Source of the DNA: Burkholderiaceae bacterium
GTDB taxonomy: Bacteria > Pseudomonadota > Gammaproteobacteria > Burkholderiales > Burkholderiaceae_E
Direction: 5' to 3'
DNA length: 64,000 nucleotides
NCBI GenBank assembly: GCA_024637155.1
Contig: JAGXFR010000037.1
Coordinates: forward strand, 1-64,000
The notes beneath the pieces are model-generated. The model did no database searches. It saw only the letters and a program-made list of their open reading frames with translations, and was not told where the DNA came from. Numbering within the stretch: the stretch's first letter is position 1; every line of letters starts with the position of its first letter. Positions 19,200 through 59,710 of the stretch are shown here, piece after piece. The position numbers and the translations under genes were made by a program.

Positions 19200-19943
19200 A
19201 TGAGCGAACCGATCATCCTCTTCGACAAGGTCAACAAGTGGTACGGAAACGACTTTCACGTGCTGCGCGACATCGACCTGGCGGTCGCCGCGGGCGAGCG
19301 AATCGTCATTTGCGGTCCGTCGGGTTCAGGTAAGTCCACGCTGATTCGCTGCATCAACCGGCTCGAGGAACATCAGGAAGGGCGGCTGGTGATCGACGGC
19401 ATCGAAATGACCGACGACATCCACGCGATCGACCAGATCCGGCGCAAGGTCGGCATCGTGTTTCAGCAGTTCAACCTGTTTCCGCACATCACTGTCCTCG
19501 AGAACCTCACGCTCGCGCCGATGTGGGTGGGCAAGATGCCCAAGAAAGAGGCCGAGGAGCGCGCGATGGAACAACTCGAGCGGGTAAGGATCGCCGAGCA
19601 GGCGCTCAAGTACCCGCTGCAGCTCTCGGGCGGTCAGCAACAGCGCGTGGCGATCGCCCGGGCGCTATGCCTGACGCCCAAGATCATGATGTTCGACGAG
19701 CCGACTTCGGCGTTGGATCCGGAGATGATCAAGGAAGTGCTCGACGTGATGATCGAGCTCGCCGACCAGGGCATGACGATGCTGTGCGTCACCCACGAAA
19801 TGGCCTTCGCCAAGGCGGTGGCCGACCGGGTGATCTTCATGGACATGGGGCAGATCGTCGAGGAAAACAGTCCGGCCGAGTTCTTCGACAATCCGAAGAA
19901 CGAGCGCACGAAGGACTTCCTCTCGAAGATCATCGACCACTGA
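19200..19943 (+). CDS. aapP: general L-amino-acid ABC transporter ATPase
   Basis: Cytosolic ATPase powering AapQM. The 247-residue product has Walker [11 protein letters not shown]-loop [10 protein letters not shown], signature LSGGQQQR, Walker [13 protein letters not shown] and H-loop VTHEM, in the order and length of polar amino-acid ATPases. It closes the aapJQMP operon. Repeat element A follows 41 bases later, and no ordinary hairpin-plus-T terminator is seen before it. Confidence 0.95.
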
Positions 19944-19996
19944 GGGGCGCGGTCCTCAGGAGACGTCGCTCGCGGGTCTCCTCGTGGCGCGCTGTC

Positions 19997-20049
19997 GTCA
20001 GGCGTCCTTGAGTCGCCGCCTCGATACCGGCTTGGTCAGGACGCCTGAC
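19997..20049. repeat. left cap palindrome of copy A
   Basis: GTCAGGCGTCC (19997-20007) pairs perfectly with GGACGCCTGAC (20039-20049). The spacer TCGCCGCCTCGATACCGGCTTGG-like segment resembles the spacer of the matching cap in copy B. Two stem pairs differ from copy B yet remain paired (first G:C versus C:G, seventh C:G versus T:A). Confidence 0.8.
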
Positions 20050-20190
20050 CACATCACGCTTTGAGGCAACTCCGCGCGTGGTTCAGCAAGTCGGCAAGCA
20101 CAGCCCTCGTGCCAGCAATCGATGCGGCGGCACCAGTCTGGTGCGCTCAAGTCTCCCGCAAATATCGCAGCGGCGCACCGCGCTCCCGCA

Positions 20191-20220
20191 CACCCGATCG
20201 GCCCGTTATCCGATCGGGTG
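20191..20220. repeat. 11-bp hairpin H1 of copy A
   Basis: CACCCGATCGG pairs with CCGATCGGGTG around an 8-base loop CCCGTTAT. The homologous stem in copy B (59431-59460) differs at three positions on each arm and is still perfectly paired, with the same loop length. Confidence 0.8.
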
Positions 20221-20351
20221 CGCGTCCGCCAGCGGCGCGCTCGGGAATGCAGTGGCGTGCATATGAGTGTGCGTGTTCGACTGAGGGCTGCGTGCGTCGT
20301 CGTTCTGCTTGCTGGCCCATGCCCTCGCCGGCGGGCGGCCTCGCGGCGCAT

Positions 20352-20377
20352 GGCGCCCGGGTCACGTGCCGGGCGCC
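20352..20377. repeat. 9-bp hairpin H2 with CACGTG loop, copy A
   Basis: GGCGCCCGG and CCGGGCGCC close an 8-base loop GTCACGTG that itself contains the palindrome CACGTG. The whole hairpin is identical in copy B (59301-59326) and lies in the 72-base core with two differences. Confidence 0.8.
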
Positions 20378-20480
20378 CGCTGCGAGACGCTTCGCCGTCG
20401 TTGCTGCGCGCGTGGAGCGTGAGCCACGCTGCTGAATCGCAGCGGCTGCCGGCGTGCCGAGACGCCCCTCAGCGCGGTGT

Positions 20481-20533
20481 GGTCAGGCGTCCGCACTAAG
20501 TGGATAACGGGCCACGACTGCGGGCGCCTGACC
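20481..20533. repeat. right cap palindrome of copy A
   Basis: GGTCAGGCGTCCGCA (20481-20495) pairs with TGCGGGCGCCTGACC (20519-20533) with a single T.G position, around a 23-base spacer. In copy B the same stem has a C:G to T:A change that keeps pairing. Confidence 0.8.
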
Positions 20534-20609
20534 GCGGCGCGCCAGACGGCAGCCGGCCGTAAGCAGGATCACAAGAAACAGACGGGGACAGGATCGCTGG
20601 AGGAGAGAC

Positions 20610-22031
20610 CTAGAACTTCTTGCCGCCCAGCAGCGCCGCGAGTTGGCGCTTGGGCTGGCGCGGGGGAACGGTGCGCGACTCCAGCGCGCCGGTCGTCTTC
20701 GCGTCAGACTGCGCATCCTCGCCTTGGGCGGGAGCGGCACCCGCGGGCTCGTAGGGTCTCGAGAAGAACGGGTCGCTCGACTGGCCCGCGCCCGTTGGCA
20801 ACACGCTGGCGACGCGGCGTGGCGCATGGCGTTCGCGTGCAACGCGCGGCGGGCGATCCACGCGACCCGGCGGCTCGCGCCGCGCGGGCAGGACGACGTC
20901 GAGGCTTTCAACCGGCAGCTTGCGCCGCAGCAGCTTCTCGATCTCGACGAGCAGCCTCTCATCGACCGGACTCATCACCGAGAGCGCGACGCCACTGGCG
21001 CCGGCGCGGCCGGTGCGTCCGATGCGGTGGATGTAATCCTCCGCAGCGTACGGCAGGTCATAGTTGATTACGGCCGGCAATTCGACGATGTCGAGCCCCC
21101 GCGCCGCAACGTCGGTGGCCACCAGCACCCGCGTCTCGCCCTTCTTGAAGGCCTCGAGCGTGGCGAGGCGCTCCTGTTGCGACTTGTCGCCGTGTATTGC
21201 GGCGGCATTGAGCCCATCGAGTTCCAGCTGACGGGCAAGGCGGCCGGCACCGATTTTCGTGTTGCTGAACACGAGCACCTGCGCCAGGTCGCGATCGCGG
21301 ATCAACTGCGCGACGGCCGCCCGCTTCGCCTCGACGCTGGCCACCTTGTACACCGACTGCTCGACATTGTCTGCGGTTGCATTGCGCGCCGCGACTTCGA
21401 TCGTCACCGGATCGTTGAGAAAGGTGCCGGCGAGCTTGCGGATTTCGTTGGCGAAGGTTGCCGAGAACATCAGGTTCTGGCGCTTCACCGGAAGCACGGA
21501 GAGGATGCGCTGGATGTCCGGCAGGAAGCCCATGTCGAGCATCCGGTCCGCCTCGTCGAGGACGAGGATCTCGGCCTGAGACAGGTTCACGGTCTTCTGC
21601 CCCAGGTGATCGAGCAGCCGGCCCGGCGTTGCGATCAGCACCTCGCAGCCCTTGCGCAGCGCGAGGTACTGCGGAGCGATGTCGACCCCGCCGTAGACCA
21701 CCGCGGCGCGCAGCCCGGTGTGCTTGGCGTACTCGCGGAAGTTCACGTAGATCTGGTCCGCCAGTTCCCGCGTGGGCGCGAGCACCAGCGCGCGGACCGG
21801 GTGACGCGCCGGCGAGGCACTGGTGTTGGCCATCGGCATCAGGCGCTGGAGGATCGGGAGTGCGAAGCCGGCGGTCTTGCCGGTGCCGGTCTGGGCTGCG
21901 CCCATCACGTCGCGCCCCTGCATCACCACGGGGATCGCCTCCGCCTGAATCGGCGTCGGCTCCCGATAACCCATCTCCGAGACGGCGCGCAGGATTGGTT
22001 CCGCGAGCCCGTAGTCTGAAAAAGCTGTCAA
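20610..22031 (-). CDS. rhlE: DEAD-box ATP-dependent RNA helicase
   Basis: RNA helicase acting in ribosome assembly and mRNA decay. Motifs in order are Q-motif PTPIQAEAIP, Walker A AQTGTGKT, PTRELADQ, DEAD as VLDEADRMLDMGF, SAT as MFSATF, and HRIGRTGR. The C-terminal tail of about 100 residues is basic and low in complexity, ending QLAALLGGKKF as in RhlE. The conserved N-terminus (TAFSDYGLAEPIL) is directly preceded by a TTG at 22031, with AAGAGGA about 11 bases upstream. An ATG at 22112 gives 27 extra unconserved residues. Start choice is moderate. Confidence 0.9.
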   Translation of the reverse strand: MTAFSDYGLAEPILRAVSEMGYREPTPIQAEAIPVVMQGRDVMGAAQTGTGKTAGFALPILQRLMPMANTSASPARHPVRALVLAPTRELADQIYVNFREYAKHTGLRAAVVYGGVDIAPQYLALRKGCEVLIATPGRLLDHLGQKTVNLSQAEILVLDEADRMLDMGFLPDIQRILSVLPVKRQNLMFSATFANEIRKLAGTFLNDPVTIEVAARNATADNVEQSVYKVASVEAKRAAVAQLIRDRDLAQVLVFSNTKIGAGRLARQLELDGLNAAAIHGDKSQQERLATLEAFKKGETRVLVATDVAARGLDIVELPAVINYDLPYAAEDYIHRIGRTGRAGASGVALSVMSPVDERLLVEIEKLLRRKLPVESLDVVLPARREPPGRVDRPPRVARERHAPRRVASVLPTGAGQSSDPFFSRPYEPAGAAPAQGEDAQSDAKTTGALESRTVPPRQPKRQLAALLGGKKF

Positions 22032-22159
22032 GTTGTGTGATCGTCCTCTTGTTGCGATCCCCTGCGCAGTGCGCCGAGGCTCGAATTGTGCGCTCTCGCG
22101 CCGGCAATGCAACCGAATATGCGGCGGGCCGTTGCGCGCGGGTCACGCCCGTACAGCGT

Positions 22160-59075: not shown

Positions 59076-59158
59076 TGGCGCGATGCGGTCAGGTGTCCGC
59101 ACCCCCTTTTCAGCGCGCCTCCCCTGATGACGTGGCGCGACGCGGTCAGGTGTCCGCA
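59076..59158 (+). repeat. tandem copies of the element-B end arm
   Basis: TGGCGCGATGCGGTCAGGTG at 59076 recurs as TGGCGCGACGCGGTCAGGTG at 59133, offset 57 bases, each followed by TCCGCA. The outer copy has no facing arm. It looks like a duplicated or remnant half-palindrome beside the intact cap. Confidence 0.75.
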
Positions 59159-59196
59159 TTCGCCGCTCGTTACCGGCTCGGTGCGGCCACCTGACC
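59144..59196. repeat. cap palindrome of copy B, phoR side
   Basis: GGTCAGGTGTCCGCA (59144-59158) faces TGCGGCCACCTGACC (59182-59196), 14 of 15 paired, around a 23-base spacer. Equivalent to 20481-20533 in copy A. Confidence 0.8.
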
Positions 59197-59248
59197 CCAT
59201 CGCGCTGTGTGGCAGCATCGCTCCCGTCGCGTACGCTGCGCTGACGCG

Positions 59249-59268
59249 GCGTGGATCACGCTCCACGC
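59249..59268. repeat. 7-bp hairpin H3 of copy B
   Basis: GCGTGGA pairs with TCCACGC around TCACGC. Copy A has the same structure at 20410-20429 with one pair fewer. Confidence 0.7.
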
Positions 59269-59300
59269 GCTCATCGGTGACGGCGAAGCGTCTCGCGGCG

Positions 59301-59326
59301 GGCGCCCGGCACGTGACCCGGGCGCC
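59301..59326. repeat. 9-bp hairpin H2 of copy B
   Basis: GGCGCCCGG and CCGGGCGCC close CACGTGAC; it is the exact complement of 20352-20377. Confidence 0.8.
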
Positions 59327-59430
59327 ATACGCCGCGAGGCCGCCCGCCGGCAACAGCTTCGGCCTGCAAGCATGATTACGACGCATACACGCACGCAACC
59401 GCATTGCCCAGCGCGCCGCTGGCGCACGGG

Positions 59431-59460
59431 TGCGCGATCGGGTAACGAGCCGATCGCGCA
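59431..59460. repeat. 11-bp hairpin H1 of copy B
   Basis: TGCGCGATCGG pairs with CCGATCGCGCA around GTAACGAG. Three pairs differ from copy A and all remain complementary. Confidence 0.8.
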
Positions 59461-59592
59461 CTCGGAAGCGCGGCGCGCCGCACCGACGCGGGCGTGCGCG
59501 GCCAGTGCGCGCCTGAGTTGCTTCCTCGTGGGCAGGTGGTTGCGGGCGGGCGGTGTTCCGACTTGGTGAAACACGCGCGCGGATGCCTCAGA

Positions 59593-59663
59593 GCGTGCTG
59601 TGCTCAGGTGGCCGCACCGAGCCGGTTACGAGCGGCGAATGCGGGTACCTGAGCACAGCACGC
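59593..59663. repeat. cap palindrome of copy B, phoU side
   Basis: Arms 59593-59616 and 59640-59663 pair over 24 bases with two mismatches, around a 23-base spacer. This is the longest palindrome of the window and corresponds to 19997-20049 in copy A. Confidence 0.85.
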
Positions 59664-59710
59664 CACGCCACCACCCCGCGCGCGCTGACTACGGAGCACA
59701 GGCCGCCCCG

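What the first reader, a model, noticed from the sequence alone, without database searches (positions are those of the whole stretch)
20191..20220. Hairpin H1 shows compensated base changes between the copies
Copy A has CACCCGATCGG/CCGATCGGGTG and copy B TGCGCGATCGG/CCGATCGCGCA when read in the same direction. Pairs 1, 2 and 4 differ (C:G to T:A, A:T to G:C, C:G to G:C) and every one is compensated, with an 8-base loop in both. The cap stems add three further compensated pairs. This points to selection on a folded RNA or DNA form. Template-switch correction between palindrome arms during replication could give the same pattern without selection.
Basis: partly seen in the sequence, partly recalled or inferred. 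Interest (0 to 1): 0.7.

Follow-up and report, generated by a model that had tools for sequence, protein, structure and literature searches.

The report
Capped palindromic repeats, folded-strand specific
The hairpin is one of four in a roughly 560-base palindromic repeat present in about 23 copies in this bacterium; its hairpins keep their fold through paired mutations in a strand-specific way, and the same cap sits on different stems in related bacteria, which points to an unknown factor that reads the folded cap.

Summary
H1 (20191-20220) is one of four hairpins (HL, H1, H3, HR) in a ~558-bp element: copy A 19986-20543 (+), copy B 59134-59664 (-). The genome holds 23 such elements (22 with both ends), median pairwise identity 79%. 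Hairpin loops fit RTnnCGnG; the left pair reads on the bottom strand, the right pair on the top strand. Compensation is real: in 43 terminal hairpins 97.9% of cells pair and 14 of 26 pairs changed on both sides. On the cap-reading strand G.T is tolerated, A.C hardly (44:7 inferred changes, against 181 C/T:167 G/A in spacers); strand-blind template-switch correction does not predict that, so I favour selection on a strand-specific fold. In related genera the same cap sits on 16-39 bp palindromes with mostly different arms; three lie in frame in uvrA, and arm copying may also act there. At copy A three congeners have only 61-82 bp. Rfam, plasmid and phage searches gave nothing, nor did a strict cap pattern in IMG/VR or a RAYT-type transposase search of this genome. 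Best reading: a new family of mobile, REP/RPE-like palindromic repeats recognised through a folded cap. RNA or single-stranded DNA, and the enzyme, remain unknown.

The parts
19986..20543 (+). Copy A of the repeat element: inverted dimer [HL(-) H1(-)] centre [H3(+) HR(+)]
   Evidence: Own-genome search and alignment of 21 elements; R1 hits at both ends (both copies were in R1's training set)
19986..20060 (-). HL, left terminal hairpin; cap read on the - strand, with one extra base in the loop region in this copy
   Evidence: Alignment A1; R1 hit 19986-20061 (-); R2 hit 19997-20049 (-)
20187..20224 (-). H1, the hairpin of the finding: 15 pairs, 8-base loop 20202-20209 (ATAACGGG on the - strand)
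   Evidence: Inverted repeat I5; pair counts; polarity
20340..20386 (+). H3, inner right hairpin with loop GTCACGTG (20361-20368)
   Evidence: Consensus fold and alignment; mean pairwise identity of the region 0.932
20470..20543 (+). HR, right terminal hairpin; cap read on the + strand
   Evidence: R1 hit; R2 hit 20482-20532; in the training sets of both models
59134..59664 (-). Copy B of the element, between phoR and phoU
   Evidence: neighbours by Pfam
59431..59460 (+). H1 of copy B (cap read on the + strand because copy B is inverted)
59591..59664 (+). HL of copy B
   Evidence: R1 hit, R2 hit 59603-59653
59292..59338 (-). H3 of copy B
   Evidence: Read, aligned (row L018)
59134..59207 (-). 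HR of copy B
   Evidence: R1 hit, R2 hit 59145-59195
19200..19943 (+). Left neighbour of copy A: ABC transporter ATPase gene (3' end faces the element)
   Evidence: PF00005, E 2.4e-38
20610..22112 (-). Right neighbour of copy A: DEAD-box helicase gene (3' end faces the element)
   Evidence: PF00270, E 1.7e-50

Best explanation
The finding is one hairpin of a mobile, non-coding palindromic repeat family (REP/BIME- and RPE-like) seen, as far as I searched, in one bacterial family. Its recognised part is a folded single-stranded cap: stem, asymmetric internal loop (AAG/CGAC or GAG/CGAA), short inner stem, 8-base loop RTnnCGnG. The arms mainly need to pair. In this genome the unit is an inverted dimer of two-hairpin halves, present at 23 places, each of the 22 examined with at least one gene 3' end facing it by my heuristic. 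Selection on the folded strand keeps the arms paired through compensated changes. Shown: the repeat family, the compensation, the strand polarity, the short site at copy A in three congeners, the cap on different arms in other genera. Inferred: that it moves or moved through a trans-acting enzyme acting on the hairpin as single-stranded DNA (or its RNA); that enzyme was not found.
For: 23 elements in one genome, 22 with both terminal hairpins, always left - and right +. Terminal hairpins: 97.9% of 1118 cells paired on a structure derived from the same alignment, 14 of 26 pairs with both-side changes, covariation 0.353 against 0.146 shuffled. Cap-strand polarity: G.T 51 to A.C 2 cells in terminal hairpins, 15:2 in H1, 7:3 in H3; 44:7 parsimony changes, p 1.2e-7, while spacers give 181 C/T to 167 G/A, Fisher p 1.7e-6. 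Hairpin regions 0.81-0.93 identical, spacers and centre 0.61-0.70. Copy A site: 61, 68 and 82 bp between the flanking matches in G001, G002, G003 (letters read for G001 and G003). In frame in uvrA of G022; short linker instead in seven congeners read. Among 22 sites 11 convergent, 11 co-directional, 0 divergent gene pairs by a heuristic.
Against: No mobilising enzyme identified: no Y1 transposase in G000, and among 13 other family genomes only one fragment, in G003. No clear target-site duplication. No near-identical copies (best pair 92.9%), so no proof of recent movement; one locus (L004) carries the element or its remains in G000, G002 and G003, so that copy is old; the short copy A site could be loss in three congeners. 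The minimum-energy fold of the whole of copy A pairs its two ends with each other on either strand, with H1 and H3 kept as local hairpins. The loop rule seen in G000 (first and seventh loop bases never both A or both G) fails elsewhere: G,G in 14 of 18 hairpins of other genomes. Polarity is weak in H3 (7:3) and in the other genera (11:4). Cap orientation is reversed relative to the genes at one orthologous site.
Confidence: 0.55

Rival explanations
1. A functional RNA element: each half is transcribed outward or lies in the 3' UTR of the neighbouring gene, and the capped hairpins act as RNA (mRNA 3' end protection, termination or protein binding), serving both convergent genes.
For: Strand polarity with G.U tolerance; covarying internal-loop positions; no site between divergent genes among 22 by the heuristic; each half is sense for one of two convergent neighbours.
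Against: No Rfam match over the gathering score. Not kept at copy A across the genus. In G022 capped palindromes lie in both orientations in frame inside uvrA. A strand-specific single-stranded DNA substrate would give the same polarity.
Confidence: 0.27
2. Template-switch (quasipalindrome) correction alone: each mutation in one arm is copied to the other during replication, with no selection on the fold.
For: In related genera arms are near-perfect (456 Watson-Crick, 11 G.T, 4 A.C, 9 other positions in 17 palindromes). At three orthologous sites 16 of 16 substitutions within the well-paired stretches are paired, and one length difference is symmetric. Arm homogenisation and spacer inversion by template switching are stated in the abstract start of PMC8604942 (listing).
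Against: In G000 G.T pairs persist and are 44:7 over A.C on one strand; strand-blind copying predicts balance. The non-palindromic cap is conserved and its internal-loop positions covary without being complementary. Cap orientation is the same in all 22 two-ended elements of G000.
Confidence: 0.12
3. A MITE: a deletion derivative of a DD(E)D transposon with hairpin-forming terminal inverted repeats, moved as double-stranded DNA by a parent transposase.
For: Long terminal inverted repeats and similar length in many copies.
Against: No target-site duplication seen. Capped hairpins occur alone in other genera and in G003, not expected of terminal repeats of such an element.
Confidence: 0.06

Closest known systems
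REP / BIME / REPIN with RAYT (TnpA-REP)
   Same: Extragenic palindromes in inverted pairs near gene 3' ends. Strand-specific recognition of a single-stranded hairpin is recalled for TnpA-REP; of PMC8266576 I saw only the abstract start.
   Different: Larger (74-nt terminal hairpins, 558-bp unit), conserved cap instead of a conserved GTAG foot, no Y1 transposase found in the genome.
CGTC-tagged REPs (PMC3733652, passages read)
   Same: Palindromes often in dimers, without an associated transposase; the paper places some Rickettsia RPEs and Neisseria dRS3 here.
   Different: Those have 8-9 bp stems and mostly 4-5 base loops; here arms are 14-39 bp and the loop is 8 bases above an internal loop.
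Rickettsia palindromic elements (RPE)
   Same: Palindromes between genes and in frame inside genes (recalled for RPE; seen here in uvrA of G022).
   Different: Here the cap is conserved while arms mostly differ between sites; RPE sequences were not compared.
MITEs
   Same: Small, non-coding, terminal inverted repeats, tens of copies.
   Different: No target duplication seen; ends are capped hairpins that also occur alone.
Integron attC sites (recalled)
   Same: Work as a folded single strand with conserved unpaired features and rather free stem sequence.
   Different: attC keeps its conserved boxes at the foot of the hairpin; here conservation is in the cap. Not tested further.

Membership tests
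REP/REPIN-RAYT | Y1 (PF01797) transposase in the same genome | tested here: not met
   0 matches in G000, controls rang in 5 of 14; among 13 other family genomes (10 of them with the hairpin or cap) one partial match, in G003. G000 is 90.6% complete, so an enzyme could be in the missing part.
REP/REPIN-RAYT | 20-40 bp palindrome with GTAG-type foot | tested here: not met
   Terminal hairpins are about 74 nt, no GTAG foot seen in the alignment; definition from PMC3733652
REP/REPIN-RAYT | Inverted dimers in extragenic places | tested here: met
   22 of 23 elements have both inverted ends; neighbours by heuristic for 22
CGTC-tagged REP | 8-9 bp stem, 4-5 base loop | tested here: not met
Rickettsia palindromic elements | In-frame insertion inside protein genes | tested here: met
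   Three capped palindromes inside one open frame of 2120 codons (uvrA) in G022; short linker at that site in G084, G030, G085 and others. Not looked for in genes of G000.
Rickettsia palindromic elements | Sequence relation to known RPE families | not tested
   No RPE sequence was fetched
MITE | Target-site duplication | tested here: inconclusive
   None seen by eye in 70-bp flanks of 22 elements; iteron-like repeats beside the ends blur the borders
MITE | Parent transposon with the same ends | not tested
   No search for transposons of G000 other than Y1 was made
Known RNA family (Rfam 15) | Match over the gathering score | tested here: not met
   Seven of the loci and window 19900-20650 gave only sub-threshold hits

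The most novel reading that the evidence does not exclude
A new class of nucleic-acid motif: a capped hairpin with a fixed internal loop and 8-base loop on sequence-free arms, acting as a strand-specific fold (RNA or single-stranded DNA) that lets palindromes colonise genomes, even protein genes, through an enzyme not yet known and unrelated to RAYT.
Probability: 0.35. Interest if true: 0.8.

Novelty: new variant of a known kind. Interest (0 to 1): 0.62.

Why it matters
It gives a natural test that separates selection on a fold from template-switch correction, since only the first predicts the G.T/A.C polarity. It also points to an unknown factor that reads a hairpin by its cap and not by its stem. 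If that factor is a transposase-like enzyme, it would offer a way by which palindromic repeats without a known enzyme, such as CGTC-type REPs, could spread.

Tried and rejected
RAYT/Y1 transposase as the mover: not found in G000; one fragment in G003 among 13 others. Known RNA family: nothing over threshold. Plasmid or phage origin: no match of copy A in 72,556 plasmid and 50,697 phage records; a strict cap pattern had no match in IMG/VR. Loop-loop pairing between hairpins of one copy: no consistent complementarity (where my expression missed 10 of 22 HL loops). The first alignment mixed orientations and was redone; expressions for HL and HR failed and were mended. One weak class-wide hit (G524, E 8e-4) is a palindrome that does not show this cap. 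Copy B site in congeners: flanking matches are arranged differently there, so it could not be read as an empty site. Five single cap-pattern hits (G017, G063, G029, G085, G093) are not palindromic and were dropped. Literature: no description found in the listings; the cap letters gave one paper, by its title and abstract start an E. coli detection assay; one search returned nothing useful. An earlier count said 12 convergent and 10 co-directional; a recount gives 11 and 11.

Full report
WHAT IS THERE. A search of the own genome (G000, 3.2 Mb, 60 contigs, 90.6% complete) with the intergenic stretch gave 55 matching places. A covariance model of the terminal hairpin (R1) showed 45 strong terminal hairpins that make 23 elements: 22 inverted pairs, left - and right +, and one (contig C59) with a single end. 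The element on C55 was found late and is not in the alignments. These hold 43 terminal hairpins from 22 elements (A1) and 21 elements end to end (A2); of the latter L021 lacks H1 and L019 lacks H3.

ANATOMY. Four hairpins, HL, H1, H3 and HR, stand around a variable centre. Loops fit RTnnCGnG, with an extra base in HL of copy A; HL and H1 show this on the bottom strand, H3 and HR on the top strand. Terminal hairpins carry an internal loop, AAG/CGAC or GAG/CGAA, in 43 of 43 (32 and 11) and in 38 of 38 of A3 (30 and 8); on a tree of spacers this switched 2 times in HL and 3 times in HR, so the number of independent events is small. In G001 a half-unit resembling H3 plus HR stands alone. At the locus of copy L004, G002 holds a copy with an internal deletion and G003 a single hairpin that joins the outer arm of HL to an inverted HR core. 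I read the element as an inverted dimer of two-hairpin halves (inference). Folded whole, copy A is far more stable than shuffles on either strand (z -7.5 and -7.2), but the best fold pairs its two ends with each other and keeps H1 and H3 as local hairpins.

COMPENSATION AND POLARITY. Terminal hairpins: 97.9% of 1118 cells paired, 14 of 26 pairs with both-side changes, covariation 0.353 against 0.146 in shuffles (0 of 500) and at most 0.082 in slid structures; the structure came from the same alignment. H1: 94.0% of 300 cells, 4 of 15 pairs with both-side changes. Mean pairwise identity by region is 0.845 (HL), 0.916 (H1), 0.932 (H3), 0.810 (HR), against 0.676, 0.704 and 0.611 in left spacer, right spacer and centre. 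On the strand that shows the cap, G.T outnumber A.C 51:2 in terminal hairpins, 15:2 in H1 and 7:3 in H3. As changes on a tree built from spacers only: HL 8:1, HR 16:1, H1 13:2, H3 7:3, together 44:7, p 1.2e-7. Spacers read in the same sense give 181 C/T to 167 G/A changes, so a strand bias of mutation does not explain it. Template-switch copying between arms is strand-blind and would remove G.T pairs, so it is not the whole story here. Limits: the tree has branches of low support, and arm types vary independently at the two ends, so copies may not share one history.

RELATIVES. The cap pattern was sought in 74 genomes of the same family: 15 had a match, 8 had a match to the reversed control, and reading the matches leaves 10 genomes with real hairpins: G000, G002, G003, G067, G022, G010, G083, G090, G094, G096; G001 has a variant. 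In genera g3 and g8 the cap sits on palindromes whose arms mostly differ between sites, though several share a few bases next to the cap: 17 palindromes, 456 Watson-Crick, 11 G.T, 4 A.C, 9 other positions; one of them (L097) is poorly paired. Sixteen of these, one each from G001 and G003, and 20 from G000 align without gaps: 18 pairs, 94.9% of 684 cells paired, covariation 0.793 against 0.199. I had taken only hairpins with at least 12 of 14 arm pairs, so the percentage is inflated; the covariation is less touched by that. At three orthologous sites (two in uvrA, one beside a homoserine-dehydrogenase-like gene, a label from my reading) 16 of 16 substitutions are paired, within stretches that I had cut to the well-paired part; at the third site a one-base length difference is symmetric. 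Arm copying would give that too, so in those genera both processes are possible. At a further orthologous site the cap is turned round relative to the genes between G022 and G010/G083.

In G022 three capped palindromes lie inside one open frame of 2120 codons that matches UvrA. Of the relatives whose linker I could read, seven have a short linker at that place, G092 and G010 a longer one without the cap, and G096 one capped palindrome. Outside the family a stricter cap pattern was absent from 386 of 386 genomes of the order. A model search in 274 genomes of the class found G000 and one chance hit, but it scored at most 21 candidates in each genome listed and is a weak negative.

SITE AND MOBILITY. 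At copy A the three congeners have 61, 68 and 82 bp between the matching flanks, against about 670 bp here (letters read for G001 and G003). By a codon-composition heuristic on 22 sites, 11 lie between convergent and 11 between co-directional genes, none between divergent ones; in six a reading frame runs to within 0-2 bases of the element and is uncertain. No target duplication is visible; iteron-like copies of the outer arm motif lie beside the ends (13 left in 22, 6 right in 21, background 0.016 per 145 bp). No Y1 transposase was found in G000.

READING. The polarity is expected alike for a strand-specific single-stranded DNA substrate and for RNA, and I cannot tell them apart. The family differs from GTAG and CGTC REPs as described in PMC3733652 (passages read) in stem length, loop and conserved part. 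The host organism could not be named; a doubled UvrA suggests Burkholderiales (recalled, not tested).

Noticed in passing
L110 1140-7499 (G022 C1:21139-27498): Doubled UvrA gene with three in-frame capped palindromes in linkers that several congeners lack.
   Followed up: partly
G000 flanks of L003, L005, L008, L012, L014: Copies of the outer arm motif (TGGCGYGCYK) outside the terminal hairpins, as short tandem-like arrays.
   Followed up: partly
L109 (G022), L106 (G083), L088 (G010): Orthologous intergenic site with capped palindromes of different arms and opposite cap orientation relative to the genes, as spacer inversion or independent insertion would give.
   Followed up: partly
L089 and L100 (G083 C33 and C95): The palindrome seems to break the assembly: both contigs end at the cap, so such repeats may be undercounted in draft genomes.
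   Followed up: no
window 59134-59664: Copy B lies between phoR and phoU; in G002 and G003 the two genes are arranged differently.
   Followed up: no
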